Part shown: positions 3,873-63,834 of the stretch, one piece after another
How the letters are laid out: each line of letters begins with the position of its first letter
How positions within the stretch are numbered: position 1 is the first letter of the stretch
Assembly: GCA_031213475.1 (NCBI GenBank)
Contig: JARUPZ010000009.1
Span: 12,426,961-12,490,960 of the forward strand
Length of the DNA: 64,000 bases
Source of the DNA: Nereocystis luetkeana
Taxonomy: Eukaryota > Sar > Phaeophyceae > Laminariales > Laminariaceae
Direction: 5' to 3'
Translations under genes and position numbers: made by a program
The notes under the pieces: model-generated
Told to the model about the DNA's origin: nothing
The model's database searches: none
Seen by the model: only the letters and a program-made list of their open reading frames with translations

Positions 3873-4194
3873 TACAACATAGTATTGCTGTACCTGGTAT
3901 ACCAGTAGTTCAGCACAATCAATCATTCTGTCGCTTTCGTGTAATATTTTCATTATCGCGACTTTCCGATATACCATCTGACCATCTGTATTTGCGGTGG
4001 GTCGGCAAGTATGCACGGGAAGTATGCACGGCATTCTTCCAAGGAAACGTGGACCATCGCCCTCACACGTATATTATAGCGTGTTTCGCGCATTCAGCAT
4101 GACACCATAATAACCCGCTCGCACAGCAGCGGAGTAATTGCTAACTGTTACCTGGTACCTGGTACACGAGAAGGAAAAATTTGGCGGCGTATCC

Positions 4195-4283
4195 CCTTTA
4201 GAACCGCATTCCCGTTTTGGGGACAAAACTACTAGAAATTTGACTGGTTTGTCCCCAAAACGGAACTGCGGTTCTAAAAGCGT
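4195..4283. mobile_element. piggyBac-like MITE, copy 2
   Basis: About 88-bp palindrome from CCTTTAGAACCGCATTCC to CTGCGGTTCTAAAAGCG. Both arms carry GGGGACAAA / TTTGTCCCC. Confidence 0.7.
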
Positions 4284-4354
4284 CGAATACACAATCAAAA
4301 CTGCTGTTCGTACTGGTCGTTTCGATTCCAGGTATTAATAGTATCGAGCAGTAT

Positions 4355-4463
4355 TATTACGGGGGAACATAGTTAACAGGACCTATGGTGCACATAAAAA
4401 CCTATATGTTTAACCATTTTTACCAACAATATTTGGTCCTGTTAACTATGGCCCCCCGTAATA
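4355..4463. mobile_element. TA-target MITE (family M1), copy 1
   Basis: About 105-bp palindrome flanked by TA: starts TTACGGGGGAACATAG and ends CTATGGCCCCCCGTAA. Inner arms match TAACAGGACC / GGTCCTGTTA. Confidence 0.82.
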
Positions 4464-4487
4464 GTATTCAATAGTATTGTATCCGGT

Positions 4488-4822
4488 CGCCCCGGTGGTT
4501 CAAGTGGTTAACCTCGAATTCTACTTGTGTTTGAGTCCTGGGTTCGAGCCCCAGGTGGGTCGGACTTTGACTTTATTTGCAAAAATAAAAATATAAAGGA
4601 TTCAATTGTTGAGAGCGCCTTGCAGCGTGGGTAGGCACAATTCGATGCGAGTCGACGAGGGAAGAAAAGGCTGAAATCTTCTCGCTATAAAAATGAAGGC
4701 ACGTACCGTAGCGGGAAGGGGGGAGAAGAGCCTGCTATGTGACCCCGGATCTGAGTTACGAGTTGGAAGGAGAGAGAGAAGATGTGCGAAGATAATAAAT
4801 GGGATGAGCAAAAATATATACA
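4488..4822 (+). mobile_element. tRNA-derived SINE, family S1, copy 2
   Basis: Same head, B box and body as the copy at 3071-3422, in the opposite orientation, ending GGGATGAGCAAAAATATA. An M1 MITE follows at once. Confidence 0.82.
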
Positions 4823-4831
4823 TATATATAG

Positions 4832-5911: not shown

Positions 5912-6236
5912 TTGTGTGTTCTTGATTCTTCACATTAAACCGTTCTTTCTACCCGTCGACATCCAGCACAACCGGTGCCCGTGCCGATTCTTCAACCCTA
6001 GAAGAGATACAAGTTCTGTGGTCACAAAGCTACGCCACAGAGACACTACCTGTTACGTTGCCACGTACCATGGTATGCAGTAAGCACAGCAGTGGGCAAT
6101 GCAATGCCATGTCATCCTACTATTAATAGACTCGTACGACAGGCTCGACATACACATTCTATGAAATAGAGAAACGAATGGAAACAATCAAAGTGGAAAC
6201 AAAAACAAAGAAGACAAATCGAAAGCGAAAACAACG
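5912..6236 (-). mobile_element. LINE tail (L1x), copy 3, partial
   Basis: Matches the first 300 bases of copies 1 and 2 (from the LINE 3' end). It carries three small insertions lacking in copy 1: TACCTGTTA near 6048, TACCATGGTA near 6065 and TATTAATA at 6121. Confidence 0.72.
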
Positions 6237-9565: not shown

Positions 9566-10022
9566 TTTTTTTTTTTTTTTTTTTTGGCTGTCGCCCACGG
9601 CTGGTTGTCGAGTTAGATCATCTGTGCAAGGTAAAGGACCTTTACTCCGCGCAAGGGAATTGATCGTATCACGTACCTGGTAGTGTTCAAGGTAAGGCAC
9701 CCAAGAGGCAGTTGCATAGTACTCCCATTGCTGTCTCTGGAAGTGGCTACACCCGAAATTAAGTTAACTCATCGAAGCTGTCATCCATATGTAAGTCCGC
9801 CCCACAAGCGGTTCTTCGTAGGATAGGATGCAGCTCACCCTTCATGCGACTCGCCGGACACCTCACGGCGCTTCGCGCTTGGTGCAAGCAATGTCTGCCT
9901 GGTCGGTGAAAACCCGACATGCTCCGTCCCGGCATTGTAGGGATGCGAGGGTCTTATGGTCATACGACTACGGCCATGCATGAGATCGAGTACATCTGTC
10001 CTACTGTAGTGAGTACACACCC
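9566..10022 (-). mobile_element. 450-bp retroposon (R450), copy 1
   Basis: Inverted relative to a second copy at 15577-16041. Both end in a homopolymer (T run here at 9567-9585, A run in the other), which marks a retroposed element. No clear Pol III boxes. This copy has a 7-base insertion making TACCTGGTA at 9674. Confidence 0.72.
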
Positions 10023-12339: not shown

Positions 12340-12730
12340 TTCGAAATATCGGGAAATATCGGACTTCTCGAAACCGTCTTTTCGGTGGGGGACAGAGTAT
12401 AGAGCTTCTCCTGTTACGAAGCTGGGATTATGCATGCACCTTGACTCAGCCGCAACCGCGCGCTCCTACGTATTAGTGGTGGATGTTTTTTTTTTCCTAT
12501 AAAAACGATACCAGGTACATCGAAAAATCGAACGACGATACCCGGGATGTCGATTTTGTCGAACCGCGATGTAACGAAACATCGATTTTCGATATATTTC
12601 GCAATATCGGACTTGTTTAAACCGCTTTTTTGGTGGGGTAAGGGTCTAAGAGTTCCCCCCGTTAGACAGCTGGGGAAAATATTTACCCGCTCTTAATCGC
12701 GGAATCCCAACCGTGCGCTCCTATATACTA
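12340..12730. repeat. Diverged direct duplication, about 130 bp
   Basis: 12345-12475 and 12600-12727 share AATATCGGACTT, TTTTNGGTGGGG, and end CGTGCGCTCCTA / CGCGCGCTCCTA. Confidence 0.6.
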
Positions 12731-13047: not shown

Positions 13048-13157
13048 TAATACGGGGGACCATAGTTGATGGGACCCATGGTATGTAGATAAAAACCTAT
13101 ATATTTAACCATTTTACTAACAATATTTGGTCGTATTAACTGTGGCCCCCCGTAATA
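13048..13157. mobile_element. M1 MITE, copy 6
   Basis: From TAATACGGGGGACCATAG to GGCCCCCCGTAATA. A TACCTGGTA scar overlaps the right flank at 13156. Confidence 0.82.
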
Positions 13158-14438
13158 CCTGGTATTATCTATTAATACGCAGACTGTGCACAATATCTCA
13201 GAACGGCCGTTTAAGATCTAGAGGATCTATCTGTTTACTGCAGATAGATATATCGCGATCTGTCCGCCGCGTGAAAAAAAACGATAGATTGAAATATCGA
13301 ACTTCGATGTATCGTGTCGGACGCGTTTATTCCCTCCATCTCCCGGCATCTCCGCACGTTTTGTGTCGAAACTAAGAAACGACAAGCAAAAGTTCCGACT
13401 TGCGGAACATACAAATTGTACGATGTTTCACTGCTGTATCGATACCTTATCGAACTCGTCCGTAGTTTGATCTTCATATCTAGCTCCCTCAAGCGTAAGA
13501 CTACTCGTCCGTCGTTTTGATCTTCGTATCTAGCTCCCTCAAGCATAAGACTCCTCCTTTTTTTTTAATCGATTTCAGTTTTTTGTTTTTTGCCGATATC
13601 GAACTCGTTCGACATCCATCACTAGAGTAGAAGTAGTACCCCCTCTGCCGGTACTGACCAGTACAGTGCCGTGTACTATAATCAGGATAACGCACACCCC
13701 GGGACGAGTCACAGACCCGGTTTCCTCGTAAAGATGTCTTAAGGAGAGCACACATTACGAAAATGGTGGCTTTGGAAATATTTTCTTCGAGAAGGCTGCA
13801 CAGACGCAAGATCCCCCTGTCGAGAAACCCAGCCTGGAAAACTGTCCTCGGCCGCGAGTCTTGCGTGTTGTACGGGTGTGAGTATCGGACGTACGTATAT
13901 ACGTATCGGGTTTTCTTTTTGTTTATCGACGTCGCATACTCGTACATATCGAACTCGATGCTTGTTCGATGTTCGTGACTTTTTATAGCCCATTCTTAAC
14001 AAGAGTGACTACACTTCGGAAAGCAATGTTGCCTTTTGGAACGCTAAACTAGAATCGACTCGACTTCTACATACGCATTCGGCGTACGAACGAGCTCAGT
14101 AAAAAACAGCTTCGGTAAAGAGGGAAACATAGGGAATCCAACTTGAGCCCGGATTCCCGTTGCTAATCTCCATGTGTCCTGTACTGTCAACATGCAGTTA
14201 GGGGTGGGGCTGAAATATTTTTAGACGTAAAAAAAGTCACAAAAAATGTCAGGGGGGAAAGGTGGATCTTTCATAAATTAACCAATCAGCGCTTATCAAA
14301 GAATAAGTACGTCGCCAGAAAAACTCTTCATCGTTTGGTATCATATACCAGATACCAGGGTAGTATGGTACGAGAGGAGCTGCAGCGTGTGGTGCGAGAA
14401 GGGCGGAGCAGCACACAAAAAAATACCACGACGAGTGC
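13158..14438. other. Unassigned, short repeats
   Basis: Holds a 48-base tandem duplication at 13458-13556 (GATCTTCNTATCTAGCTCCC) and ATCGAAC/GTTCGAT motifs. No gene recognised. Confidence 0.4.
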
Positions 14439-19700: not shown

Positions 19701-20806
19701 AAGGTACTTGGAGTTTGAGTGGTTTGGCACCAAAACAGGACTGCTGCAGTCCTAAAAGGGATGAACCTACATACCGGTATGTCTACTGTAAAAAATGAAC
19801 TTGAGTGGAGTAAAAGTGAGCACTAAGTATCAGCTACTACATCGTACTATTACGGGGGACCATAGTAAATACCGGTAGGACCTACGGTACACACAAAAAT
19901 CTGTATATTTTCCTATCTTTACTATTACGGGCGACCATAGTAAATAGGACCAGATATTTTTAGTAAAAATAGGGAAATATATGGGTTTTTGTGTGTACCG
20001 TAGGTCCTATTAACTATGGTCCTCCGTAATAACAATATTTGGTCCTATTTATTACCAGGTATAGTCCCCGGTAATACTGTAAGTCAAATACACAAACGCT
20101 AAATGGTCGTTGGCATCAAATTATTTCCATTTTTTTTTCACAGTTGACAGGCACACAGCAGCAGGACTGTGATTGGTAGCGATGCTTGGCGCAATCGGCC
20201 GTGGAACTTGGAACGGCAACTTCAACCAATCAGGAGCGAAGAAGCTAATCTTGCCGCATAATAGAGTGTCTGCGCATTAGAGCCTGGTATCAGTATAGGG
20301 CTACCCTATATATACCCCCTATACGGTATGATATTTCCATAGTACTTAGTCATGTTTCTTTTCGCCGGAACATGCGAAATATATCATATCGTATTACATC
20401 GCTATATATAGGGGTTTTCGGCACGATGTGACTAAAATGTGATATGATATTTGGCATATGGTATATACGCCCGCAATGAAGCGATATATCGGCCTATATA
20501 AGGTGAAATACGTGATCTAGATATCCGATATGTGGCATAACATGTCGACTTTTGCTGTCTTGACGATATGTCTTGCATCTTTCGGGCGTACATTTTGGGC
20601 GGAATACACGTGCAGTATATACCTGGTACGTAGATACGAGTACGAGTACGAAGCGTGACGCACACACAAGGGGACGCACCAGGGGTCTGTGTCCGCTGCT
20701 GTCTCCCTGTCGTGCGGTTTTTGATCCGCGATGAGCGAGTCGAACGCGACATCGCCTGCGGCCACAAGCGAGCCACAGCTACAGCAAGCAGTCGCCTTCG
20801 ACATCG

Positions 20807-22158: not shown

Positions 22159-25100
22159 CACTACATGCCGTAGTAGCAGTAGTCCGTGACGTGCATCAGC
22201 AGCTGCAGCAACACCTATCTGCTGCAGCAGCAGGCAGCAGAGTAGGCATGCAGCAGCAGCGGCAGCAAATCTCGCAAAACCCCGCCGGTATCAAACATGG
22301 TCCCAGGTCACTCTCGGGGCTTGGCCAATCCGAAGCGTCCGGAGAGTTTTCGGTCAACAGAATGCAGCGGTCGAATCTCATATCTTACAAATATGGCTCT
22401 AGTATATTATACCAGGTACTATCCAAAAATGCGTAACTTCGTCGTTTTTATGCAAATTTGATTGCGAAATTTGATTAGTGCGGGGGACCATAGTTATAGG
22501 ACCAAATATTGTTAGTAAAAAACGGTTAAATATATAAGCTTTTATGTATACCATAGGTCCTATTAACTATGGTCCCCCGTAATAGTAGTCGGTAACGGGG
22601 GAATAGATAGGCAAAATTCCTATTAAATAATACTTTTTGTTTTGCGCAGACACCTTAATAACGCGCGAGAGGCGAATAAAGTTGCCAAGTATTAGGACGG
22701 AACTCGAAGCTTTTTTTTTTTTTTTTTGGTACTGTTATTATCTCGCAATTACGTCAGCTTTGAGGTTTGTTGTATATCAGGTACCTAGTGCCCCTGCTGT
22801 GTTGGTGTTCATGTTAGTATGTTAATACGATATATGATGACTCTTGCAAGCTGACAGTTCTGATGAAGCGTACCAAACGAGCGGGAACACAAATGACAGT
22901 TACAAACGAACGTTACGCTTGCGGATCTGAACAGGAACAATTCCGACGTCGCTGCAGGGTCTGACGAATCTGACGCTTTTAGACCTGGGAGAGAACGACT
23001 TGGAAGGTACAGTTCGCTACAGTGGGAAGTATTGTTCGTTACAATAGTATGTTCCCATAGTTATGATGTGATGCTCCTCTGTCATCGTGGTAGGTTGTTG
23101 CTCCAGTACACAATAGCGTTGTGCTCCTAGAGAATCTGCTCCAATCACTCGATCGTGTAACAAGGCGCCTCCCGATCGACAAGCCTAATGGCATCGACAG
23201 ACGCAGCGAAGTTTTAACATATTATTTTATGCATCGGATGCAGGTGCTATTCCTGCGGAGATTGCCAACATTCCCAGGCTCGCGACCCTGAAGCTGGACA
23301 ACAACCATCTGTCAGGTAAACGCCACCACAAGATTTCGATGCAGTTTTTATGTTATTCGGTACAGAGTCTCTGTACTCTGTGCGCATGCCCGTACGTGCC
23401 AGGTATACACAGTAGTTTTTTTAAAATGCGTGCGTTGTCTCCGAGTTGAGCATTACAGTATACCGTTCTTTTTTCGTACCCCCAGTAGCGGCGGTCGTAC
23501 ATGCATACGTGCGAAGGATAACTATCTACACGTTGGACAGATAGATCATCTAAATATCAGATAGATCATCGGCAGATGTGTCATTTACTACGTGCGAAGA
23601 ATAGCTATCTACACGTTGGACAGATAGATCATCTAAATATCAGATAGATCATCGGCAGATATGTCATTTACTACGTGCGAAGAATAACTATCTACACGTT
23701 GGACAGATAGATCATCTAAATATCAGATAGATCATCGGCAGATATATCATCTACCTCGTGCGAAGAACCACCATCCGCACGTTGGACAGAAAGATCATCT
23801 AAATATCAGATATATCATCTACAGATATATCATCTACTACGTGCGAAGAACAACTACCCACACCTTGGACAGATATCCACATGTTGGAAGATAATCTACA
23901 GATAGATCATCTACATATCAGATAGATCGTCTACAGGTCAGATATATCATTTACGGATCAAATATTTACAGATATATCGTCTAGCCCCTAACCTGCAGCT
24001 ATGACACGTTGTGCCGGATCTATATAAGACACAGTGCGGCAAAGTGTGCTCGATCATGCAGATTATGCGGCTTCCACCCGGCAAGGTGAGGTAGCTCATA
24101 CATATCATACAGATCATGCAGATCAGAAATATCTCCGCCCTGAAAAATCAAGATCATCAAGTGATATCTGTCTTGCGTGCGGAACTATTAAGACGCACTC
24201 TCCACACCATGTACTGCAGATCTGCAGATTGTGATTGGGCTACTAAGACCTATGCCAATGGTACAGCGAAGTTGCAATAAAAAGTTTGAATTTCAAAGAT
24301 ACCCGCCAAAAAAAATCAGAACATGCTTCCTATGGGCCACGTCAAAAAAAAAAAAAGTTCCCAACTTTTGGAAAAGCCCAAAAAAAGCAAATCTGGGGCC
24401 GATGTTGGGCCAACATCGGCTTGAGAAAAACTCAGGCCGATCTTTGGTTCGAAGCGGCGAGATTCCGAGTCCTCGACAGACATCGATCAACAAAACCAAC
24501 GATTGCGTCATGAATTCTGAACGGAGTGCGCTCGTTAGGGGCTCCGACCCACCCTAGGGTCACCGTCTTCACACCATGACCGGTGTCATGTGGCGGGAGC
24601 TGACCAGGCGTGTGATAAAAAAACATTTGGCCGCTGGTTTGCACAAAACAGAAGACAAAACTTCTCCATCCGTCTCGAATGGCAAAAAATAGACTTTTTT
24701 CCAGGTTTGGGAGGGTACCGTAGGACGCCGCCGGCAAGCTCTCGCCCCCCTAGACCATGGATCCACCTGATAGCTTCGAGGCCGTCATCTATACTCGTTG
24801 GGCTTGCCAGATACCGAGTGGGTTGGCCGTGGGCTGAGTCTATGTCGAGATCGAGCGTCGATCGTCGCACGAGCTGGTTTCGATCACCGTGTTGACAATT
24901 TGCAACCAGAAAAACACAAATTGCGCCGCCTGCAGCCGTTGGGGGAAAAAAAAAAAAAATCAAACATTTTTCTCTTTCTTCCCCACAGCGGCGGTACGAG
25001 CAAATTTTCGGCTGTTTTCTGAAAGCGACATTTTTGAAAAAAAACTTTTGAACTTCGCGTTTCCATTGGCATAGGTCTAACGGTCCAATTTTTAATCTCT

Positions 25101-27855
25101 AAACACACCGCATGTGGCATGCCGGTTGCCGCTGAAAGCGCTCTCGAGGTTGCGCCGCAACCAATTACGTTTCGGAGGTTTTATATCACTTGTCGGTAGT
25201 CGTATATTCCCCTCTCGAGGTTGCGCCGCATTATAAAGCGTTTTTTTTTGTGAGTTTGCGCCGCTCTCGCTGACGTTTCATTACCACCTGGCGCTTGCAG
25301 ATTGTGGTGTGTTTCTCCTCACGATGTTTCGCCGCACACCGATGGCGTTTCGGTTCCACAAGATTCGGTTCCACAAGATTGCGCCGTATTGGGTGACGTT
25401 TCATGTACCGTGTCGATTGTTCGCGTTTTCCCTCCTCCCGAGGTTGCGCCACACCTCGATGGCGTTTCGGTTCCGCAGGAGTGCGCCGCAGTTGGTGACG
25501 CTTCGTTGTTTTTTTTGTTCCGGTTGGCAGTGTTGAAACGGTTTAATGTTTCGTGCTAGTCTCCCGGGCGTAGTGATGCCAGTCAACCAAACGATGACAT
25601 AGTCGCCATTTGAGCTTTGTGATGTCACTGACCAGTAACTAGTCACCAAGGGCGTGCTTATTTTATTATTTCAGCTGTATGGCTTTTGTTATGAAATATA
25701 AAGCGCGTTATGTAAAAATAGCGTACCAGGTACGGCTCCCAGAATACCCACAACAAACGCTATTAAAACCCTACGGAACTGTGTTTTGCAGGAGTGCACG
25801 ATTGTACCAGGTATGGGTTTTCGTTGCTGACCTTACTACAGCAGAATGCCCTAAAACACGATGTGGCTTGAAGTATAGCGTACATCACGCCGTACATACC
25901 AAAATGTATACTGCTCATGAATATGTAGTCACGGAAACGTGACCGAAAACATGACGAAAAGTATCTACCAGGTATTCAAATAGAAAATCACCCCTTTTTT
26001 GTTTGTTTATTGGCAACACTATTATACTAAGGCGACGTCCCGCGGGAGCTGGGAAAAGCGAAGATTCTGACGCACCTGAGTCTGAACGACAACAGCTTGG
26101 AAGGTAAGGACTACGGTAGCAGTGGGCATTATCGTGTCATCAGTTTCCTATGTGTAGGGCTATGCGTCGGCTCGGATTAAAATCACCAACTATATATTAG
26201 TCACACTTCTAGTTGATCGTTTCCCGGAGGTGCCGGCTATCCGACTTGTTTAGTAAGCAATGAACACCTCGGATAGTTCGTCGATTCCTATCAAGGCTTG
26301 ATTGATCATGGACATATTGCAGGGGAGATGTATTCCTCATCTTGTATGATCTGTATGATCTGTATGACTAGTATGGTCTATATGGTGTGTATGATTTGTA
26401 TGATCTGTATGATTCTGCTCATGTTGCCGGGTAGGAGCCGAACAACCTGTGCAGTCTACGAGCACACACTTCCTGTCTTGGATCTGTACTACACAGATCC
26501 TGCACAACGTCTCATGTTGGCAGACTTATAATCTAGATGATCTATCTGTAGACAGATAGGTTGATAGATGGAGGTGTGAAAGGGTTGTTGTATGCGCGAT
26601 AAAGTGGGTGCAGTTTGGATTGTTGAAGGCGCAATACATTTGGTCATCAAAGTTGCTTGGACGCGGTACCCTTACCCGGTGCGGGGGAGGAACCTGATTT
26701 GTCTCGCTTCGCTCGCCTGGCTCAAGTCGGCTACTCGGCTGGCCATCAATCGCTTTATTTTTACCAGACGACTTGCCGACTAAAGTCAGTTAGTTGGCTA
26801 ACGGCACCTCCGAATAGTTAGTAGTCGTGATATCCTGCTGACTCACAGCTGAGCGGATTTATGTGTGGTTCGCTTGCAGGGTTCCTTCCTCCGGAGCTAG
26901 GGGCACTCTCCAGTCTAAGGACGTTGAATCTGGGGGGCAACGGAAATCTGGAAGGTGCCGTATGTGTCAGGGAGGGAGGGAAGGAAGGAGGGACAGGGGA
27001 AGGGGAGGAGGGTGAGGGAATGGAGGGAGTGGAGGGAAGGGGGGTACGAGGCAGGAAAGGAAGGAGGGAAGGAGAGAGGGAAGGAGGATGGGAGGGAGGG
27101 AGAGAGGGAGGGGGAGAGAGAGGGAGAGAGGGAGGGGGGGGAGGGAGGGAGGGGGGCAGGGGGGAAGGGACGGGAGTGTACTCATGTTATGCATGGCCTC
27201 AGGTCCGTATAAGAGCGGGGACATGGGGGGGAATGGAGGGAGGGGCACAGGCATGTTGCTTTGTTCTTGCACGGTTTGTTCTCAAGTTTACTGTCGTCGC
27301 TGCTCGGTCGGTTGGTTTTGTGATTGTAAAAGAATGTTTGGGTTGCGAAAGTTGACTGATTGTGTTATCGATTCGTTGATAAGTTTACTGATTGAATAGT
27401 TTAGTTGCATGACTGATCGATTGGAATGCTCGCTTGCTTGCTCCTTGGTTTCTGGGTTGGCACAGGTCCGATCCCGGCGGGGATCGGAAACTTGACTCGG
27501 CTCCGGACCCTAAACCTCAGTGCCAACGGCCTTAGCGGTGAGAGGTTATGGAGAGATGAAGATGAAATAGACCAATCAGATAGATCAATGCCCTCCGGGG
27601 GCATAATTGTTCCTGATTCGTAATATCTGTTATTAATAGCACACGCTAACTCCGATGGATTTTGTTTTCTCCAGGGGAAATCGAGACGGAATTTGGAAGC
27701 CTTGCTCTGAGCCAGGGGGGCCATCTATCCCTGGATTTCAGCAACAACTTCTTGTCAGGTGGGTGGACAATATGCAGATCGCACGACTATCAATGCTGCT
27801 GCTACTGCTGCTGCTACTTACTTTTGTAGCCTCTGCTACTGCTATTGTACTATTG

Positions 27856-38317: not shown

Positions 38318-39345
38318 ACTACGGGATGATGGAGGTGGTTGTGTTATGGTTAATAGTGCCGGTTGTCGTAGCCGAAGGGTTAGCGGCACTCTTGTTGATG
38401 GTGTTGCTATATTTTCAGTATTCAGACTTCGACGTAGTACGGATAGTACTGGGTGCATGCGTAAAGCAGTAGCAGCGGTGTACGCATGCTATTTCTGATT
38501 CATCATGCAACACATATATATTGGATGCAGTCATATATTGAAGACCTTACTCTTGGGCAAATACACGATTTTCCTGCAATGTGCCAACGCCCGAATCTAC
38601 CGCGCCTTGTTTAGGCTTACATCCATTTTACCCTCTGTTTTGTCCATTGCTTTTGTACGTTTTTATGGGTACGGAGCACGAAATAAACGTGTATGTTATC
38701 ATGGTGTGGTTACCCCCAAGTAAGCTCAGTTTGCTCGCAGCAAAAACCAATTATGCTACTGCTTTTTTCTTGAAAACGCCCAGATATGCCGAACGAATTC
38801 CCAGCATAATGGGCATGAGCCTTTAGACCTGTTCGGGTTTCCCCCCTGCTTTATATAGGCCCTCGTCTGCCCCCCCCCACCCCCCCCCCCCCACCTCATG
38901 ATTTTTATGCTCGGAACAAAGCCCAATTGCTAATTGCGCTGTTTTTGATCTCTTGAAAAACGCCTACAGTAATTGCCGGCAGAACGGACATAAGCCTAGA
39001 CCTGTTATGAAACGTCCGACCTTCGTCTGCTCGCCCTCGGACAGGATGCTCGTCGAATTATCCGCGGCATCGCTGAGGGTATGGCATTTTTGCATCGGAA
39101 AAATACCTGGCACGGAGATCTGAAGTCCCTCAATGTGCTACTGGACGCGGCCGGCCAAGCGAAGGTAGGATTGACGGGCTGACGACTGAAAACGCCACTT
39201 TATCAAAATCTTGAATATGTATATACCAGGTATATAATATATATATCTTTGCTTTGTTGCTGGATTCGTTGTTTGGGTTTTATTTCTTTCTCTGTCTTTT
39301 TTGCTCGTCGGTCTTTTTTTTTGTCTGTCTGTCTGTCTGCATGCC

Positions 39346-40401: not shown

Positions 40402-43400
40402 CCCCTTGTCCTCCCACCCCTTGCCCCCCCCCCCCCACTGCCTTCAATTTGTGAAACCCTTCCTCTAATTTTGGTCGCTTGTCTCACGACCATTTCTGAC
40501 CAGATTTCTGATTTCGGCACATCCCATTGCACGGAGCTCTCGAAGTCGAGGAACCTGCAGACGGCGCCTGGCAGCATGGGGCGGGATCTCCAGTTCAGTT
40601 ACAAGTGGGCAGCGCCGGAGGTGGGTGGGGAAACATGGAAACGTTTTTCGCTTCTTGTGTAGAAAAAATACGATCCACACCTCGAACAGATGATGATCTA
40701 CGTGATCTATCTGTCTACTCGAGATCATCCCGTATCTCACCTGCCGTTGTTTGAGGTTGTGTACAATCTGAATACGCGCAGACCCAGCCCAGGAAAACAT
40801 GCGCTACGATCGTTCAGATCATGCAGATCATACGGCGTTAACTCAGCAACACAAGCTACTGTAGATCGTTTCGAGATCGGGAAGATACCTTGGCTGTCGA
40901 AAGGTCTAGATCATGGAGTGGGAATCGTTTTTCTGATCGAGGTGTACCTGATATGTTTTTTCAGCATTTGTTTTAGTTTCTCTTTTTTGGTTTTCCTACC
41001 CTCAGGTGGATGGGTAACCACTTTTTCAAGTCCAGAAAAGAAAACGCCCCCAAAAAGGGGAAGGTTGTGATCACTCAGTTCCGCAGTCCGAGGACATGTA
41101 AGGGGCGTTCGAAGACTAAGATGGAGGTACAATCTTCAACTTTTTTTCCCCCGCCTATTTTGGAGCATACTTTTCCGCGATTCGGGACGACTTTAATCGA
41201 TGATGTCGTTTATGCACGAAGTAATGATAGTGAACCCTGAATTGCGATCGGCGTATTGATAGTGGAATACAAGTATATTGGTGAAGGCAGCCTATCTATC
41301 CTCTAGCTTCATAAGGGTTGGCTGCAAACGCCTATTTTTGCGTTTCGGGGAAGCAATACTCGTATGACCCAACCACTGGGTGAGGTTGTCTCACGAGCAT
41401 TTGCCTACAGCAAATTGAGGGCCGAGCTCTGGGACTATACTATTACGATGGCATGAGTGAGTGCAACTAAATTGTTAATGACTACCGGTATTTTAGTGAA
41501 GTGTTAATTGATCAATTAACTACAGCAGTTCATTGTTGATTTAATGTATTTTCGTTGATTAATTTTGTATTTCTTCCATCAAATTTAATTTCAGGAGACG
41601 ATACGGTTATACTTATATTTTCGCGGTTCGAGACACGATATTTCTGTATACGAGGTACCTGGTATTATTTATGTACCAGGTATAACTTGAGCTTATCGCT
41701 TTTTTTCAATTCGACAGAGCGGCAACTTCATGTCCATTTTGGTCTCTATTCGACCCTTCTCTTTGTTTTCGACCAAGAATTTTATTTCCAGGAACATTCT
41801 TGAACATCGAATACAAGGATCAAGCATCAAATGTCAGCTATCGAATATCAACTACCAGGCATCAAAAATATCCTGTGACAACTATCGAAGATCAACCATC
41901 GAATACCCGGTATCAATTATCAGTATCACATATATGTTTAATTTTATTAATATAATATCAGCTACCAATTCAAATCACAGGTGCTGGATCCGAGCCGCAG
42001 ATCCCACCAGCAGCGCGAAGCATCCGGCCAACCTGCTCTATCAGCCTCGGAGGAGACTGGCCGAGAGGTCGCAGAGCTTGCTGGAGCCCTCACGGGCGAT
42101 GTAAGGTTCATGAGCGACGTCTACAGCTTCGGAATCGTCGGGTGGGAAGTGCTCTCCACACAGGTACAATGTCCGAAAGTATCTGCTAATTACAGCACTA
42201 CAGTGGGGTACCCGCCGGTAAGCACTAATTATCGGTTTGAGGCTTTCTCGGGAGATGAGACCAGGTTATTCGACTTTCTCACGAGATATGTGCTTGACAT
42301 TAGGATGGTCAGTGGTAAATACTAGACCATAATATAAACATCAGGACGTTTATTGGCTCTTCACGGAAGCTCACGCTATTACGGGGGACCATAGTAAATA
42401 GGACCGAATATCGTTCGTAAAAACAAGGAAATATATAGGTTTTTGTCTCTACCGTAGGTCCTATTTACTGCGCCCCCCCGCAATAACCCCCCGCAATAAG
42501 TTGGACAGGTCATGGACGCCGCCGTGGTCGAATGCATGCTCGGCCATGGCCGGACCCGTGGGAGCCACGGGCGATGGGCGACCATGACTTACCCACGAAC
42601 GCCGCCATTGATGAGACCATGGACCCGAAGCCATGATCGATATATGGTAGGGCCGAGACCGTCGTCGACCGTGGTGGTTGGCCGTGTGGATGGGCGGGCC
42701 CATGGGCTGTCCAACTAGTGCAGATTAACGCTCGCCACTGGGGGGTATTGAGATCTGTAGATGCCCCGCGGCTTGTACCGCTCTTTAAGCACGTTCAAAA
42801 TAACCCGAGCTTTGCGTCGAAGTTTACCTACCACTATGTGCAAAGCATGGTGCATGCTTTCGTTTTTTTTTTTTTTCTCCCTCTCGTCGTTTTGAACCTC
42901 GAGTCTGTGTCACGGAAGCTGTGTCTCGGACTGCAGTACCGTAGGAAAAACAAAAAACACATACCAGGTACGGCAGTAGTGGTCCGTCTATTGTGCCGGT
43001 GGAGCGCTGGGGGGGTGCCCTCATCGTGCCGCCCGAGTGGCGCCGGCTGCCCGCTACAGCCCTGCAGTGCCTCTGAAAGCGCTTGACGCAGATGGGGTTT
43101 GGCAACTGTGTCAGTCTGCGGAGCACGTACTGCTGTAGTTCTGGTTGCCGCTTAAGGGCCGGTATAGTTGGCTGGCGCATACCGCCCCTATAGAGCGACC
43201 AGTGCTGCTGCATGCTTGCTACCTGGTAGCGAAAATACAACACAAATACATACTATAATATACAGTATACGGAAGCACAACTTCCCCCTCGGGGATGTGC
43301 CTACTGTATTAACAGGGGAGTGGCGCCAAGGCGGAATGAAAACCACACAGTGCGTTTTTTTACACCCCTGGTTGTCTAAATTCTTGTATACGCCCAAGGT

Positions 43401-46139: not shown

Positions 46140-46187
46140 ATTTATATATATACCAGGTATACGATATAAATATAATATATACCAGGT

Positions 46188-46240
<53 letters not shown>

Positions 46241-46290
46241 CCTGGTATATATTATATATATTATACCTGGTATATATATTCCTGGTAGGA
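46140..46290. repeat. AT tract carrying four TACC(A/T)GGTA scars
   Basis: (AT)n with TACCAGGTA at 46151 and 46180 and TACCTGGTA at 46239 and 46264, arranged as an inverted pair of pairs. Confidence 0.75.
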
Positions 46291-47960
46291 GATTTATCGC
46301 AGCGCCTTGCAACCGAAGATGGTTGATAAACCGAAATTTATCAGCGTTCTGAAACAAACGACCCTACCTTTCTAATTCATGCTGGGCTGTTTATCGTTGG
46401 TGGACCCATAGTCTACTGCTGTAAGGCAATTCATTGGCTTGTGATTTTTGAGCTTGGAATCGTTCGGCTGGTCACGCGTTCATCCCTGTTTTTTGGTTTA
46501 TACCAGGTACATTGATAGTGCAAGGGTAGTAGTTACCAGTAGTACATGACGCCTGTTCACAGGAGGGGCGAAAATAATGGCGGGCTGAGATTTTCAGGGG
46601 AAAAATAAGGCCTGAGGTTGATATCTTGAATCTACTGTATGTAGTGTTGGTCAACACTTGCGACCCATCCCGGACTTGAATATTGGAACCGTTCGGGGAG
46701 ACCGGTTTTTACATTTATGTCCAGCGCGGAACTATTAAATAGGTGTCTTTTGCTGCTGTACGTTGTACCAGGTGTGCACAGTGCTTATGCACCTGGTATT
46801 GTTTTGCGGTCCTTTTTTTTCCCTCGTTTTTTTTTTTTTTTTTTTTTTTCGTTTGGTGTGTGTGTTTGCACCATGCGTGTCGGCTTTCCGAGCCGCAGGG
46901 AGCGTCAGCAAAAACGTGCTCCCATTCTGCCCGGGAACGATACGCACACGTTTTGCATTGACTTCAGAGTCCAACCGGGAGCTAAATGTCCGTCGAGAGT
47001 GGTACCTATTATTAGGAGACCGGCGGCGTTTTACCCCTTGACTGGAGACCGGCCCTTTCAAAACTGCTAACCTGCAACGAAGTTAGTGGGCCACGTTACT
47101 CGATGTTAGTGTGGCGTCACATTGGTTTCTGCAATTCTGAAAGGGCAATGCCCAGAGAGGGCTTGTTAGGCCTTCACAGGCCCGAAACGTGCAAAACAAA
47201 ACGAGCCAAGGAAGGTAACAAAAGGCCCAACAGGCCGAAACCACCTTGAAGAAAACATTTGTTTTTTTACCAAAAACGGGCGTGACGCGCCCGAAAAGGC
47301 CGGTCTTCCATGAGAATTATTTAGTATCAGGGCCGACGGGAATGAAGAAGCCCTCGTCCCGCCCTTACTTTGAAGTTTGAATGATCTGTGGACGGGAGTG
47401 ACCTTTTATTATTGACATATTTTTGGTGTTGCGATTTTGGCCATGAAGCCTTCCGGCTGGTTTGGAGCTGGGGCTCGTTAGAAAGCGCTCATCTCTCTGA
47501 TGCCATGGCACACGATTTCTTAGTGCAGTGGAATTGACCCGCCGGCCGCTGCTTGGCTGACGGTATTAGCCCGCTGACGGCTGAATGGTTGATGGGAATT
47601 GATCCGCCGTAGTTGTGCTTTCTTCGCTCGGGTTTAGTGATATTTTGTCAGTTACCACCACCGGAGCATGCACGGCTGTGGTCCCTTCGTGTTGTAAGCA
47701 TCATACTCGGGGGAAGGGGGGCGAGGAGGGGCACATCTTTTTCAACGGCTGCTAGGTATTCTACTTCTTTATAAGCACAACAACAAGAGTAGGCATTTAT
47801 AGGCTCACCGCATTGAGCTCTTTGGAGGGGACGTTATTATATCTTGAAGGCGTATTTTCCTGACTTGTTAGGGTCGAGTGATGGGTTGCTTGTTGCCCCG
47901 CATGCGATGTGACAAGGCAGGCGTGAAGGCAATGAGAGGTGACATTTTTGTTTTTGTTAG
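46291..47960. other. Unassigned; hairpin-rich at 47130-47310
   Basis: T run 46829-46849. At 47140-47200 CTGAAAGGGCAATGCCC and AGGCCTTCACAGGCCCGAAA form short hairpins like those seen in some LINE 3' UTRs. No ORF of known family. Confidence 0.4.
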
Positions 47961-49430: not shown

Positions 49431-50327
49431 CTAGGCCGGTTAAAAATGTGAAGGAAGCCGCCGAAGCGTGGCACTATTAATAGACGCCTTTCTAGTGGAG
49501 ACACCCAGCGACTGCGGCTTCCTGTGTTGCTGTCCGTGCTGCTTGTTTCTTTGTGTAGCTCTTTTGCCCGCCAAGTCGATCGTGGCCCTCCGTACTCCGC
49601 CACTCTGCGTCGGCTGCGTCACCCTATTTCCAATTTTGCGTTGTAACTGGGACCTTTTTCACGCTATTTTTCGTGTTCAGTCATTTGTCTCTGCCCCCCT
49701 GACAAAATGGCACAAGGCGGGCTGCTGCTTTCATTTCTCGAAGCAAAATCTAGTTTGAGTGATTTGTGAAGCTGCCATTGATCGACGGGGATGGCGGCCG
49801 CTTTATGCTTCCCTGAAAGAGAACATGGATGCATACAGGATACACTTTGGAGCCCTCACGGGGTCCCGGGGTGAGAGAGGACGGCAGGCCGCCCCTCTCC
49901 CGCTCGACACTGGACTCAACGTTGTGCTCATTTCCACCGTCTTCAGCTTACCTTCCCACATGATCGACCGCAACCCGGGCACGAGAATTAAGCACAAACT
50001 GGGTCCCGGGGTGTAGGAAGGTGGCAGGCCGTCCCTCTCCCGCTAGACTATTTAGATAAGGTTCTGTTTATTTCCAACGTCTTCTGCCGGTCTACGGTAG
50101 AGGCCCACCTACAGTATTACCCGCCCATGATCGACCGAAACCCCGGCACGAGAATAAGCTCGAATTCAACCCGGCCACAAACGTCAATGTTTAACAATGA
50201 AACCAAGGCACATTTGCAGTGCAACTGCTGTGTACAGTGCCCGCGCAAAGTCGACATTGCGCTGATGTTGCAATCTTACACGGCAGGAACTCAGTACAAA
50301 CGTGTATGTCGATTCGCCCTCACGTAC
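49431..50327. other. Unassigned; one local duplication
   Basis: GGGTCCCGGGGTG and ATGATCGACCGNAACCC blocks occur twice or three times (49860-50150). TATTAATA at 49475. Confidence 0.45.
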
Positions 50328-50984: not shown

Positions 50985-51094
50985 TATTACGGGGGACCAT
51001 AGTTAATAGGACCTATGGTATACATAAAAACTTATATATTTAAACCTTTTGTACTAACAATATTTGGTCCTATTAACTATGGTCCCCCGTAATA
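50985..51094. mobile_element. M1 MITE, copy 17
   Basis: Near-consensus copy, TATTACGGGGGACCATAG to GGTCCCCCGTAATA, outside the gene. Confidence 0.85.
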
Positions 51095-52612: not shown

Positions 52613-53580
52613 CGACCAGCCCCTCTGCTCTCTACTTGGTGAATGGGATAACCAAACATCGCTCATCATGATGAAATACCATGGGGATAAGCCACGATCA
52701 AATCCAAATCCAGGATATTATACTCAAGATAACAAAAATCAAGATCACCAACGTCTGAAACCAGAATCTCAAGCTTCAATCAAGAAGAGTCCGAGCATAT
52801 CAAAACTCAGCTTCATACATTCAAACAAAAAATTGCGACTGGAAGCAGCAATCCCAACGAAAATATATCTCAAGCGTATAATCCCCAAATTATACAGGTA
52901 GGTGCACGGTGACATGTCGGATTCACACCGAAAAACTATATATCACAAATCATAGGACCGCATGACGTTAGAGCTTTAACCTCCGAAGAATAGTGACCCA
53001 AAAAAAAACAAATCAGAGTGACAAAAAATATCAAAATATCGAACAAAATAAAGAACTCCTCGAATCTCAAGAATATCAAATCAAGACTTCCAAGGTCAGG
53101 GAAATCCACAAACAACGGTAAGCCCTGAAACATCTTGAGATCTACAATCAACTCCTCAACTAAGGAAATCCAAGATCAATTCCTCAAAATCTCGGAAATA
53201 AACAAAACAACAAGAAGAATCGACTCGTCAAGCCTCAATAAAATACAACTCGCCAAATTCAAACCTAAAAATGACAAAAATCGACTGATTAAACCTTAAA
53301 AAATACCAGGTACGTATAAGAATTGACTCTTCATACCTCAGAAAAAGTGGACAACTCGCTAACCCCCCCCCCCCCACCCAAACAAATCAACCCACTCTCG
53401 TATTGTGAGTAGGTTTAGCAGTCTGGGAGAAGGGATCTTCAGGGACGTTTTTTACTTGAAAAATGGGTAGCGTGGTCTGCACTTCGGAATCGTCGTCCGC
53501 AACTAACTGAGAAATTTCCTGGTTCGATGCAAACGCGGCGCAGCCGCGTTTATGGCGAGTTTTGGCCCGTTTTGGCTGCG
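52613..53580. other. A/T-rich unassigned segment
   Basis: AAATC/CAAGA-rich sequence with TACCAGGTA at 53304. Composition differs from both sides, so it may be an insertion. No gene recognised. Confidence 0.4.
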
Positions 53581-57841: not shown

Positions 57842-58072
57842 CTGATATGATGGGTCTAACCTGAGTCAGTTCATAGAGCCCCTCAGGGTATGTATAGATG
57901 TTGTCCAACTCACAAGAAGACAACGAAGTTGAAAAAAGAGTGGCGGACAAAATTTTTATCGTAACTCGTTGAATGCTCCACGCGCAAACGCGCATACCAG
58001 GTACTTCCGTGTGCCCAACTCCCAAACACCGTTACCACTGAATCCCTGCACCGAGTGCGTGAGCACTCCGAA
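57842..58072 (-). repeat. Ty1/copia LTR, proximal copy
   Basis: Pairs with 52371-52612. It holds a TACCAGGTA at 57995 where the other copy reads GTATAT. Confidence 0.65.
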
Positions 58073-59059: not shown

Positions 59060-60480
59060 ACAAGTATATACGCCGCATTTAGTTTTGCAAAATTGTCTTC
59101 ACAGCGGTAAGTAGTTGAAATAAATAGGACGGCACGGCAAAAATGAGAACGAAGCAAGACAGATATATACGGAACAACTTTGATAATTTATAAGCCAATT
59201 ATCTCTTTCCACCAACCTGCTGGGGGCTCTTTCTTGTTGCAGAGGGTCAACAGGCAAAACTCGATGAACATCGACGAGCAGTCGGGAATGCTCCGTCGTC
59301 TGGGCGATAAAAATAAAGCGGAGAAAGGACAACGCATTCGACCACGGTTTCCAGAAGCTGGAATGTAAAAGGGATATAATCTCTACCCAAAACAGGCCGT
59401 GAAAGAGTCTGGTGCACCGCTACCACCAACAACACGAAGCAGATATTTTTCTAGCATGTCGAATACTCTTTACGAACCACGATGCATATCCCATACCCCC
59501 GCCCAGTACGACACCGAGTCGTACCGATATCCAGCACGCAGACGCTCAGTCTAAACCAAAGCCCGCCTGCTGGGGTACCGTCCGCGCCGGTCCCGACTGG
59601 TCTTGCTGCGGCAGAACGAAAAACAACGACAAGCAAGCTGAGAACAGCGCTCAGATGTATCTCATCGAGGGCAATAACAAGATTATAATAGGTTTTAGCA
59701 ATGATGGGATGCCCTTGATGGCTGCCCGTCAAGGGGTAATTGTGCCATCAACCGACATCTATGCTGGCTCGAGACGGTGAAAATATTCTGTTTTCGATGC
59801 CAGCACCCAGATTGGACCTCTTCTCCTTTGGCTGAAGGGAGAGAGGCCGTAGCCTCTGCGGCTTTTGACATCTAATACCGACAAGGGTGTACCGACAAGG
59901 GTGAGGGGAATGCGGGCTGGGGTGGCCGGTCTCGTGCCCCACCTTTGCGCGTGCGTTGAGGGTTTGGCGTTGGAGAAGCAGGCGACGGATTACCGATTCC
60001 TGCTATTTACGGGTGAAAGCACGACGTTTGAACAAAAAACTGTACGACATTTGTAGGCTAGTATGTATATGGTCGCGAAACGAGCGTCGTCAGACTCTTT
60101 GTCTGCCGTGCACACCGGGCGACCAAACTCCACGAGGCCGAGGTGACGGAGTCTTTGGTTTCGACCGAGTCAGATGAGTCTACGCCGCGGGAGGAGTGGT
60201 ACGGTCGTGGGGGTACACACGGTGCCTATATACCCTGGTATTTGTTTTGGTACACGCAGCAGGCAGTATTACACGTTAAAGCGTGGAGGTTTGGTTAGGC
60301 TGTGATGGCATTTCTTGTATTCTCATGTAACCGCCATGAACAATCCAAAGTTGTGAACGAGTACGTGTGCGGCTTATGACGAGGTACGACGATGGCGTCG
60401 TGTTTTTTTTACACCCTCAAGCAGCTCTCCTCACGGAGTAGGTCAGCCTGCAATATGTTTCGTTGCCGACTCTCGAGGGT
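59060..60480. other. Unassigned apart from a SINE piece
   Basis: S2 body fragment on the plus strand at 59226-59380 (GAACATCGACGAGCAGTCGG). The open frame 59412-59780 (122 codons) has no recognised family. No other gene. Confidence 0.45.
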
Positions 60481-60739
60481 GTGATTATGCTTTCCCTTGT
60501 CGTGCCCCACCGTGCTCCCCTGTCTCGACTGCTATGCCAGGGCGACCTCCGGCGTGCGTGATGTACTGCTTTCTGCTGCTGCCGCCGCCGCCGCCGCCGC
60601 CGCTGATCTGCTGCTTGCTGCTGCTGATAAGTACCACTGCTGTTGTGCTATTGTGCTGTTGCTGCCCGCGCAGCTCCCCTTATGGACTAGGTCAGCATGC
60701 GATATGTTTCGTGACTGAACCTCGATGGTGTGGTTCGTT

Positions 60740-61060
60740 TTTTCCCCCTCTTTTTTTTCAGTCTCACTTTAACTTTCCACTTTCTTGACAACAAGCTGTG
60801 GTCACGAGTGTCGTCGTTTTCCCTCCCCCCCGTCAGTGCTCTCATTTTTATCGAGCAGAAGGTTCATCATTCCCATCGCTCGTCGACCATTGATTGAAGT
60901 TGCTAACTCTCGCTCTCGCGCTATCGGTTCGTCCAGTTTTTACGAAAGAAAAAGTCGCTATGAGTACGAGCACGCACTCGCTGAGACTCGAACCCACAAC
61001 TTGACTTTATAGTAGGGACTAGATGCACCTACTACAAAGTAGCTCCATCGAGGACGCCAT
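60740..61060 (-). mobile_element. SINE family S2, copy 3 (different head)
   Basis: S2 body with minus-strand B box GTGGGTTCGAGTCTCAGC and a head GGCGTCCTCGATGGAGCTAC unlike that of copies 1 and 2. Confidence 0.72.
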
Positions 61061-61434
61061 TATACCTTTGGTCGTCGTGCCCCACCGTGCTCCCCTGCCT
61101 CGACCGCTTTGCCGAGGGCGACGTCGGGTGTGCGTGATGTGCTACTGCTGCTGCTGCTGCTACCGCCGCTAGGCGTTTTTAGTTTCTCATGTAAACGGCC
61201 AGGAAAAACAAAAATCCTCGTCGTGCTCCCCAGCCCCGACTGCTCTGCCGGGGCGACTTTGGGCTTGCGTGATGTACTTACCGCTTGATCTTGCTGCCGC
61301 GGTGCCACCGCTCTGCTGCTGGTGCCTGTGCTGCTACGTACCACCACGGCAGTCCTGTTCTGCTCCTGCTGCTGCTCACGCGGCTCCCCTCACGGAGTAG
61401 GCCAGCCTACGATATGTTGCGTGTTTTTCTTTAA

Positions 61435-61768
61435 ACTTATTATTTTTTTCTCACTATTAATATTTTTTTCCAGCTTCTGGAGAAGCCGTGGTTAATTGTG
61501 TCGTCCCTTCTCATCCCCGGTAAGTGCCTTCGTTTTTATCGCGCAGAGGGTTCAGCATTCCCAACGCTTGTCCATTATTCACGGAGTTTTGCTACCTAGC
61601 TCACGCTCTCGCGCTTTTGGCTCGTCAACTCTTCGGGCTAGAAAACATATCTATTAATAGGAGCACGATCACGCACTACTATGTGAAAATCGAACCCACA
61701 GCTTGACTTTAGAAGGGACTAGACTCACCTACTCCAAGTTAACTCCATCGGGGACGCCAATATACCTT
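61435..61768 (-). mobile_element. SINE family S2, copy 4 (different head)
   Basis: Same head type as copy 3 (GGCGTCCCCGATGGAGTTAA). It carries TATTAATA at 61652 where copies 2 and 3 have only TA, and another at 61455. Confidence 0.72.
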
Positions 61769-62199
61769 TGCTCGTCGTGCCCCACCGTGCCCCCCTGCCT
61801 CGACTGCTGTGCCGAGGGCGGCCTCGGGCGGGCGTGATGTGCTACTGTTGCTGCTGCTGCTACTGTTGCTGCTGCTGCTACTGTTGCTGCTCTGCTGCTC
61901 CTGCTCTGCTGATGGTGCTATGTGCAGCTGCTGCTCACGCAGTCCCCTTCAGGGTGTAGGTCGGTCTGAAGCTGTATTACTATGCGTTCCCATCTCGTGC
62001 GCCACAGGGCTCGCCTGCCTCGACTGTTGTGCCAGGGGCAGCCTCGGGCGTGCATGATGTGATAGTGCTGCTACTCCTGCCGCTGTTCTGCCGCCGCGCT
62101 GGTGCTACTGCTATGTTCATTCTTCTGCTGTTGTGCTGTTCTGCTGCTGCTGCTGCTGCTGCTGCTATGTCTGCGATATACTTTAGCTGCTGACCCCTG

Positions 62200-63834
62200 T
62201 GAGCATGGTTATTGTGCAAGTATACCCCTCTCAGTGATGTGTCTCCGCACCGTAAAGCTGAAAAGCGGATCCACCTGCTTCGGACGCTGTCCGAGTACCG
62301 TAATTGATACCAGGTGTATATTCAGCCGCTCGGCGGAGGTCTCGTGCCAGCGTAGCATGATACGTACCTGTACGCCATGCGGCTGCTGCTTGCTGCTGCT
62401 GAGCTTGCTTGCTGCACCAACGTGATTGCCAGCGCTACGCACTGTTGATTAACTCGATCGGCTGCTGCTCAACTATCTGTTTTGTATCTAATCTGTATAC
62501 ATACGAAGTATTTAGTACTGACGCCGAGCGTCTCGTACGTTCTACTTTGTAGTACTGCTTCCTGTTCGAACGAGTTATGCGTTGCTGTGTAGGATGGCGG
62601 ATAGCAAGGCTTGTTTTTCTTGTGTTTGCAGTGTTTTCTTTCTCTTCATTTATACCTGGTATCCATTAATTATATATAGATAGCGTGATGCCCAGAGTTT
62701 AACTTCATCGTAGTATTGCCTCTAATACAAACTTGTTTAACAACTATATACCTCACGTACTCACAACGTTTTTAAGCTCCCTTCATGCAACAACGTAAAA
62801 AAAACGTATCTCTCACATTCTCCGAAATAAATCACCTTTTGCAAGCTGCCTTCGCGCAACGTTCCAAGATCTTGTTCTTTGGGACGTCATCTTCGAAACA
62901 CGCATGTGTTCCTGCCCTCCTGCGCTTTGAACATCCGGTCCTTGTCATCTACCGCCGCTTCACCCGAAGTCCATCGAAACAAAAGTCTTTCGAGCTACCG
63001 AAGGGTTCACGCAAACCTCTCTGTCGTCTTTTGTACACTACATTCGCCGCGCTGTGGATTACTGCCGACAACAAGGCAGTACCTTCTTCTGTAAGCTCTG
63101 CAATAACACCCATTTTCCAAATCATCCCCCCTATCTCCTTCTGCCGCAGCACACTGCTGTATACACACAGTCATGCAGCTTGACACGAGAAGGTATCCGT
63201 TTGTCCCGCCGCGTTGTTGGTCGAGATCGTACTTTGCCGTTACGTATCGAAAACCCGCCGCAATATTTATTATTTAACCAACCGACACCCCCCGTATAGA
63301 GAGGATGAGGAGCGGCGCTCGCTACACCGCGTTTATTGGTGGCCCGTGGCGATGATGATGAGTTTCGGCACGAAGACCTTGTCCCGAGCAAAGACAACTC
63401 AACTGCAAAGAGCAGCAGCGGCAGGAAGAAGCCTGCCTACAGCACCTGTGGTGAGACAACACAAACCGCCTACACGGTGCGAAAGACGTTGGCTGTTCTA
63501 GCAGAAGCGGATGTATGACGCGTATGCGCGGTTCGTTTATCATCCTCCGTCGGTTCGCGTTTGCTCGTGTCGGCTTCGTTTGATCCCCGTCGAGTTTTAC
63601 CACTCGGCTTGACGCTGCACCTGCTGCTGCTGCTGCTGCTGCTGCTCCTCCCTCTCGCCATCGTATGATGCTGTTGTTGGCACCCTGCTCGAGCTCCATT
63701 ACTACTTTAATATCAGTAAGAATCACGATGATCCAAAACAGATTTTCACGACGTCAAAACTCGCCCTATATCACCTGTGCAGCAGCCGGTTTGATGGTTT
63801 TAGGGGGTTGTACCGAGATTGCTCGCGGCTCGAA
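62200..63834. other. Unassigned; open frames without known domains
   Basis: Plus frame 62785-63183 and minus frame 63726-63322 are open but show no recognisable motif; CTG/CAG steps at 63610-63650. A real exon cannot be excluded. Confidence 0.35.

What the first reader, a model, noticed from the sequence alone, without database searches (positions are those of the whole stretch)
3888..62661. TACC(A/T)GGTA micro-insertions: likely excision scars of an unseen TA-targeting transposon
About 30 exact copies of one 9-mer occur, roughly 60 times the random number. Where repeat copies can be compared, the 9-mer is an insertion at TA: R450 copy 1 reads CACG-TACCTGGTA-GTGTTC, copy 2 CACG-TA-GTGTTC; M1 copy 11 reads AAA-TACCGGTA-GGACC, other copies AAA-TA-GGACC. 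Variants TACCGGTA, TACCATGGTA, TACCAGGTA and TACCTGGTA are what 2+2, 3+3, 3+2 and 2+3 retained end bases give for an element with ends CCA...TGG and a TA target, as with known Tc1/mariner footprints. No such element was found in the window. This many scars would mean a very active, excising family.
Basis: partly seen in the sequence, partly recalled or inferred. Interest (0 to 1): 0.85.

Follow-up and report, generated by a model that had tools for sequence, protein, structure and literature searches.

The report
Genome-wide scars of a jumping element
A short nine-letter motif scattered through this genome is most likely the repair scar left when small jumping elements with matching ends cut themselves out of TA sites, so the genome carries a written record of a very large number of past jumps.

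Summary
TACCWGGTA occurs 27 times in the window against 0.43 expected, and 182,395 times in the 465-Mb genome against 1,744 for the reversed pattern. It is an insertion at TA: one TA of a repeat (M1) is empty in 28,870 genomic copies and holds 1-30 extra bases in 1,186; of the 100 inserts listed, 42 are pure CCWGG units. Two copies fill that same M1 TA; an old copy lies in the window at 34057-34136. TA plus tip occurs 1,893 times genome-wide, control 8. M1 is a positive control: its predicted scar TATTAATA is enriched 46:1, and a DDE_3 transposase gene has an M1-like right end. M2's transposase was not found. Best reading: footprints of Tc1/mariner-type excision at unusual density.

The parts
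3891..3899 (.). scar TACCTGGTA
4149..4164 (.). double scar TACCTGGTACCTGGTA: a second event at the TA of the first scar
6066..6075 (.). 3+3 scar TACCATGGTA; one paralogue carries TA only
9674..9682 (.). scar TACCTGGTA; paralogues in L027 and L020 and at window 16011 carry TA only
12509..12517 (.). scar TACCAGGTA
13156..13164 (.). scar TACCTGGTA at the end of an M1-like sequence
14353..14362 (.). variant TACCAGGGTA
19870..19877 (.). 2+2 scar TACCGGTA inside an M1 copy; 19 M1 copies in the 264-kb sample have TA there (other TACCGGTA: 499, 1328, 19772, 30991, 41483)
20053..20061 (.). scar TACCAGGTA in M1-like sequence; 11 paralogues empty
20620..20628 (.). scar TACCTGGTA
22410..22418 (.). scar TACCAGGTA
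25724..25732 (.). scar TACCAGGTA
25805..25813 (.). scar TACCAGGTA
25966..25974 (.). scar TACCAGGTA
34057..34136 (.). old copy of the source element M2 (80 bp): TIRs CCACTATGTCCG / CCACTCTGTCCGGCAATACAAGGAACG; TA on the left, TC on the right
35843..35851 (.). scar TACCTGGTA
36993..37001 (.). scar TACCAGGTA
39224..39232 (.). scar TACCAGGTA in an AT-rich stretch
41656..41682 (.). two scars (41656 and 41674), 18 bp apart
42962..42970 (.). scar TACCAGGTA
43220..43228 (.). scar TACCTGGTA
46151..46272 (.). four scars inside a (TA)n stretch (46151, 46180, 46239, 46264)
46501..46509 (.). scar TACCAGGTA
53304..53312 (.). scar TACCAGGTA
57995..58003 (.). scar TACCAGGTA
60231..60240 (.). variant TACCCTGGTA
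62653..62661 (.). scar TACCTGGTA
50987..51092 (.). example of a complete M1 MITE (TA[TTACGGGGG...CCCCCGTAA]TA); others at 4357-4461, 8672-8781, 16855-16959, 31800-31905
49474..49483 (.). CTATTAATAG, the scar expected from M1 (others at 5827, 6120, 61651)

Best explanation
TACC(A/T)GGTA is the excision footprint of a family of TA-targeting terminal-inverted-repeat elements, here called M2: about 79 bp, ends CCACTCTGTCC...GGACAGAGTGG. A transposase of Tc1/mariner type (inferred for M2) cuts the element out and leaves both flanks ending in TA plus three element bases (CCA on one strand of each side). Those overhangs cannot pair. They are joined with one terminal base lost, or with a one-base A-A overlap, and filled in, which gives TA-CC(A/T)GG-TA. 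Joining with other amounts of trimming gives CCGG, CCATGG, CCACTGG and so on. The excised element goes into another TA, preferably R-TA-Y, including the TAs of old scars, which produces tandem scars. Shown: insertion at TA, the scar spectrum, the target preference, the element, and its presence at the same TA. Inferred: 3-nt overhangs, the repair route, and the identity of the transposase.
For: 182,395 sites against 1,744 control. At one M1 TA: 28,870 empty, 1,186 with 1-30 bp inserted, control 0; of 100 listed inserts CCTGG 30, CCAGG 10, CCCTGG 10, CCGG 3, with doubles and triples. 7 of 75 scars have an exactly empty paralogue and 2 share the scar, against 22 and 152 for 962 control TAN5TA words; Fisher p 4e-5. 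Rate per reconstructed TA: RTAY 1.15%, RTAR 0.28%, YTAY 0.27%, YTAR 0.10%. Elements CCACTC...GACTGG fill the same M1 TA in L046 and L047; two sites there carry CCACTGG, keeping the fourth base of the M2 tip (L042, L050). Tip TACCACTCTGTCC 1,893 against 8. 8 of 20 such places read are complete 78-80 bp elements, and 7 of the 8 have TA on the right too; the left TA was part of the search pattern. Internal control: M1's ends TTA/TTA predict TATTAATA, found 46 against 1 reversed.
Against: No transposase was tied to M2: the DDE_3 genes read have an M1-like end (L071) or ends not found (L072). Of nine M2 copies found by profile, two have TA on both sides, and those two were picked at a TA; five have TA on one side and two on neither as bounded. 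At least 17 of the 100 listed M1 inserts (A, AA, TAA, GTAAG and the like) and 8 CTCC-type ones are not CCA/TGG products. At the M1 site CCTGG outnumbers CCAGG 30:10 and CCCTGG outnumbers CCAGGG 10:1; symmetric ends do not explain this, and the extra C is unexplained; 18 asymmetric sites elsewhere show no bias, 9:9. M2 copies are divergent (21-28%), so other CCA-tipped families may have made part of the scars; 10 of 20 tips read belong to a longer body. The 3-nt overhang is taken from Sleeping Beauty/mariner, not measured here.
Confidence: 0.9

Rival explanations
1. TACCWGGTA is a selected binding site (transcription factor or chromatin protein) multiplied by selection, not a scar.
For: It is near-palindromic, exact and dispersed with unrelated flanks.
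Against: It appears as a 7-bp insertion between a duplicated TA in repeat copies, with trimming variants, tandem units sharing TA, four copies in a (TA)n stretch and a target bias outside the motif.
Confidence: 0.02
2. The scars come from a different CCA- or CCC-tipped TA element (perhaps larger, unsampled), and M2 is only a relative.
For: CCCTGG is common in one orientation; 10 of 20 tips read belong to a longer body; sampled M2 copies are old; M2's transposase was not found.
Against: M2 is the only element seen at the scarred M1 TA (2 of 23 places read, of 32 listed), and CCACTGG scars keep M2's fourth base.
Confidence: 0.25
3. Micro-insertions arise without a resident element: a transposase nicks TA and repair adds a templated CCWGG.
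For: Scars far outnumber elements: 75 to 5 in 264 kb; at the M1 TA 1,186 short inserts against 2 elements in the 23 candidate places read, a search that could see only one orientation of M2.
Against: The insert is exactly the element's two tips, with tip-derived longer variants. M1, a resident element, leaves its own tip-derived scar. In cut-and-paste, scars count jumps, not copies, so an excess is expected.
Confidence: 0.04

Closest known systems
Sleeping Beauty / Tc1-mariner excision footprints
   Same: TA duplication, 3' overhangs from the element tips, repair by end joining leaves tip bases between two TAs (passages of PMC7827188; footprints of 2-4 bp, passages of PMC7913693).
   Different: The main scar here is 5 bp, CC(A/T)GG, as expected from non-pairing CCA overhangs, and it is present in the reference genome in six-figure number instead of being recovered from assays.
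Stowaway / plant mariner MITEs (rice excision survey, PMC4423477, passages)
   Same: Short non-autonomous TA elements; excisions leave footprints. The minor scar CTCCGGAG would fit a CTCC tip; Table 1 there gives the Mariner TIR as CTCCCTC.
   Different: In rice, events were found by comparing two genomes (90 and 102 recent Mariner transpositions in the passages seen); here one genome shows scars by word count alone.
Mariner-Tc1 families of the Ectocarpus genome (PMC12477816, passages)
   Same: TA-element superfamily rich in MITEs (17 families, almost 12,000 copies).
   Different: The passages read do not give element tips, and 'footprint' occurs 0 times in that main text. That the present genome is a brown alga is my guess from gene and repeat style and was not tested.
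Paramecium internal eliminated sequences (recalled; PMC3464196 seen only in a search listing)
   Same: Many short TA-bounded elements descended from mariner-type transposons (recalled).
   Different: IES excision is precise and leaves one TA (recalled); here a few bases remain between two TAs.

Membership tests
Tc1/mariner (IS630-Tc1-mariner) - M2 elements | TA target and TA duplication | tested here: met
   7 of 8 complete elements read have TA on the right as well as the left; left TA was in the search pattern. L046 and L047 lie between duplicated TAs of M1. Of nine profile hits only these two have both TAs; five have one
Tc1/mariner (IS630-Tc1-mariner) - M2 elements | terminal inverted repeats | tested here: met
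   18-22 of 30 tip bases match in 6 of 9 copies compared; 7, 15 and 18 of 30 in the three with uncertain ends
Tc1/mariner (IS630-Tc1-mariner) - M2 elements | footprint made of a few bases of each tip between two TAs | tested here: met
Tc1/mariner (IS630-Tc1-mariner) - M2 elements | DDE/D transposase encoded by an autonomous member with the same ends | tested here: inconclusive
   DDE_3 genes exist, but none was shown to have M2 ends
Tc1/mariner - M1 elements | autonomous copy with DDE_3 transposase and the same ends | tested here: inconclusive
   L071 ORF 1330-2640, 437 aa, DDE_3 46.6 bits; L074 and L075 are 99.5% identical to L071 and share an M1-like right end ...CCGTAA-TA; the left end was not fetched
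Tc1/mariner - M2 elements | 3-nt staggered cut by the transposase | not testable with these tools
   needs a cleavage assay

The most novel reading that the evidence does not exclude
The genome holds a near-saturating record of cut-and-paste events in which almost every M2 insertion has been removed again: about 182,000 scars, one per 2.5 kb, with scars outnumbering elements about 15 to 1 in the sample and apparently by hundreds to 1 at the M1 target. Excision is therefore strongly favoured over retention, either because breaks are almost never repaired from a copy holding the element (for example in a haploid phase) or because a host-kept transposase works as an element-removing enzyme.
Probability: 0.15. 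Interest if true: 0.88.

Novelty: new variant of a known kind. Interest (0 to 1): 0.72.

Why it matters
Excision footprints are usually recovered in small numbers from assays or from pairs of genomes. Here a single assembly carries six-figure numbers that can be counted by a word search, each a past jump with its target site preserved. That would let target choice, end-joining outcomes and the ratio of excision to retention be measured from sequence alone. It also gives a rule for reading other genomes: list TA-X-TA words against their reversed control and infer the tips of elements that may already be rare. The rule worked here: the scar predicted the tips CCA...TGG and the element was then found.

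Tried and rejected
Rejected: binding-site reading (insertion data). A tip CCAGGTG like Mos1 (recalled), suggested by a 33-bp palindrome at 46766-46798: TACCWGGTG words are better read as decayed scars. TIR scans of TACC...GGTA in the sample found only long inverted repeats and scar or microsatellite pairs. A length histogram of TACCA...TGGTA showed no peak. 32 M1 sites starting TACC[AC][AC] were listed (control 2) and 23 read: 21 were M1 variants or other scars, 2 the element. L072 transposase: no M2 or M1 ends in 6.4 kb. L073: three ORFs, no Pfam match. PF13358 at E<=0.001 gave none; matches appeared only at E<=10. PF01359, CTATTAATAG genome-wide and the patterns CCATAGTWAATACCWGGNB and TACCASTCNGAMCC did not complete. 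Rfam: nothing at gathering score in the window. Papers: searches (listings only; open-licence PMC) showed no title or abstract reporting scars at this density.
Full report
What was checked. The window is a piece of contig C9 of an unnamed 465-Mb assembly (G000). TACCWGGTA occurs 27 times in the window (15 TACCAGGTA, 12 TACCTGGTA), with 0.43 expected from shuffles. Genome-wide there are 182,395 sites against 1,744 for the reversed pattern, about 105-fold and one per 2.5 kb. The flanks in the window are unrelated. In 264 kb of own sequence (window plus L009-L028) it is the TA-N5-TA word most skewed against its reversal, 75 to 0.

It is an insertion at TA. M1, a frequent repeat of the window, is a ~105-bp MITE, TA[TTACGGGGG...CCCCCGTAA]TA; 12 of 15 complete copies in the sample have TA on both sides. 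One internal TA of M1 (CCATAGTWAATAGGACC) is empty in 28,870 genomic copies and carries 1-30 extra bases before a second TA in 1,186 (control 0 for both). The first 100 listed inserts were tabulated: CCTGG 30, CCAGG 10, CCCTGG 10, CTCCGGAG 4, CTCGGAG 4 (in a repeated block on C2), CCGG 3, CCTAG 3 (same block), singles such as CCATGG, CATGG, CTGG, CCCGG, CCCCTGG, and double and triple units. 50 of 100 are 5 bp long, and 40 of those 50 are CCWGG. At least 17 of 100 (A, AA, TAA, GTAAG and the like) have nothing to do with CC/GG tips. Across all repeats of the 264 kb, 7 of 75 scars have a paralogue with an exactly empty TA and 2 have one that shares the scar; for 962 control TAN5TA words the figures are 22 and 152 (Fisher p 4e-5). 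Some of the 22 control 'empties' are shadows of neighbouring true scars.

Target choice. Reconstructing the empty site, 55 of 4,790 RTAY, 9 of 3,261 RTAR, 9 of 3,326 YTAY and 2 of 2,001 YTAR carry a scar: an 11-fold range set by bases outside the motif. Scars recur in a (TA)n stretch and in the TAs of other scars.

The element. Of 32 genomic M1 sites that continue TACC[AC][AC] (control 2), 23 were read. Twenty-one are M1 variants or further scars, two of them TACCACTGGTA. Two, L046 and L047, hold a complete 79-bp element at that TA: TA-CCACTCYGAMCC...GGGTCWGACTGG-TA. This pattern could see only one orientation of the element. A profile search of the held sequence found relatives in the window (34057-34136), at four places in the C1 stretch, in L032 and in L044. 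I call the family M2. In the window, the two tips match the consensus tip with 3 and 1 mismatches; 1 of 100 shuffles gave two such matches, and here they face each other 80 bp apart. Of the nine copies, two have TA on both sides, five on one side, two on neither as bounded. M2's tip with TA, TACCACTCTGTCC, occurs 1,893 times against 8 reversed. Twenty of the first 100 listed places were read: 8 are complete elements of 78-80 bp, 7 of these with TA on the right as well; 10 continue into a conserved longer body whose far end was not reached; 2 are unclear. The 8 copies differ by 21-28% from a rough consensus of 11 rows, three elements entering in both orientations.

Mechanism. For tips CCA/CCA the possible retained-base products are CCGG (2+2), CCAGG or CCTGG (3+2), CCATGG (3+3) and CCACTGG (4+3). 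Counts in 264 kb against the reversed word are 17:4, 75:0, 3:1 and 0:0; shorter products are weak or absent (3+1 17:11, 2+1 64:38, 3+0 55:53). CCACTGG appears at two M1 sites. Three-base 3' overhangs as in Sleeping Beauty and mariner (PMC7827188, passages) account for this. CCA and CCA cannot pair, so the ends are joined with one terminal base lost or an A-A overlap. The same rule explains M1: overhangs TTA and TTA can pair over two bases and give TTAA, and TATTAATA is found at 46 sites against 1. The overhang length and the pairing step are inference.

Transposase. DDE_3 (PF13358) gave no match at E<=0.001. At E<=10 it gave 30 matches, among them ten with the same score in open frames of 437-515 aa and a different one of 599 aa, all over the cut-off with their neighbours. 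Of the ten, three were read: L074 and L075 are 99.5% identical to L071 over at least 3.45 kb and end on the right in ...CCGTAA-TA, like M1; the L071 frame scores 46.6 bits. So an autonomous Tc1/mariner-type partner of M1 is likely; its left end was not fetched. The 599-aa gene (L072) has no M1 or M2 ends within 6.4 kb. M2's partner is not identified.

Scale and age. Exact scars 75 against 0; one-mismatch relatives 112 against 30 reversed, one complementary pair of words counted twice. So scars of many ages are present. Elements are fewer: 5 M2 in the same 264 kb. In cut-and-paste, scars count jumps, so an excess is expected; the excess at the M1 target looks much larger, but only one orientation and 23 of 32 candidates were examined. 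Unexplained: the 30:10 and 10:1 orientation biases at the M1 site and the extra C of CCCTGG; 18 asymmetric sites elsewhere split 9:9.

Known or new. Footprints of this kind are known. The passages read and the listings of eight paper searches (open-licence PMC only) show no report of a genome saturated with one scar. The species was not identified; brown alga is a guess.

Noticed in passing
window 5827, 6120, 49474, 61651 and genome sample: TATTAATA / CTATTAATAG is strongly enriched against its reversal (46:1 and 15:0 in 264 kb); it fits the excision scar of the M1 MITE.
   Followed up: partly
window 48635, 63864, 63889, 63933; M1 sites: A third TA scar type, CTCCGAG / CTCGGAG / CTCCGGAG, would fit an element with CTCC tips like Stowaway.
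   Followed up: no
window 18436, 23555, 23638, 23721, 23804, 23916, 51848: TATCWGATA is also skewed (8:0 in 264 kb); four window copies are 83 bp apart and so may be a tandem repeat, not scars.
   Followed up: no
L071 1330-2640, L074, L075: Open 437-515 aa DDE_3 frames in ten same-scoring copies; the three read share an M1-like right end and are 99.5% identical: a young, possibly active element.
   Followed up: partly
G000 C1, first ~13 Mb: M1 is sparse there: 100 empty-site matches in 12.9 Mb against a genome mean of about 62 per Mb.
   Followed up: no
L054, L056-L060, L062, L063, L065, L067; L073 from 96: M2-tipped elements with a conserved longer body (GAGGCGCGCGAGCGCGAAGC...), far end not reached.
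   Followed up: partly
M1 TA site: CCTGG exceeds CCAGG 30:10 and CCCTGG exceeds CCAGGG 10:1 in M1 orientation; no cause found.
   Followed up: partly
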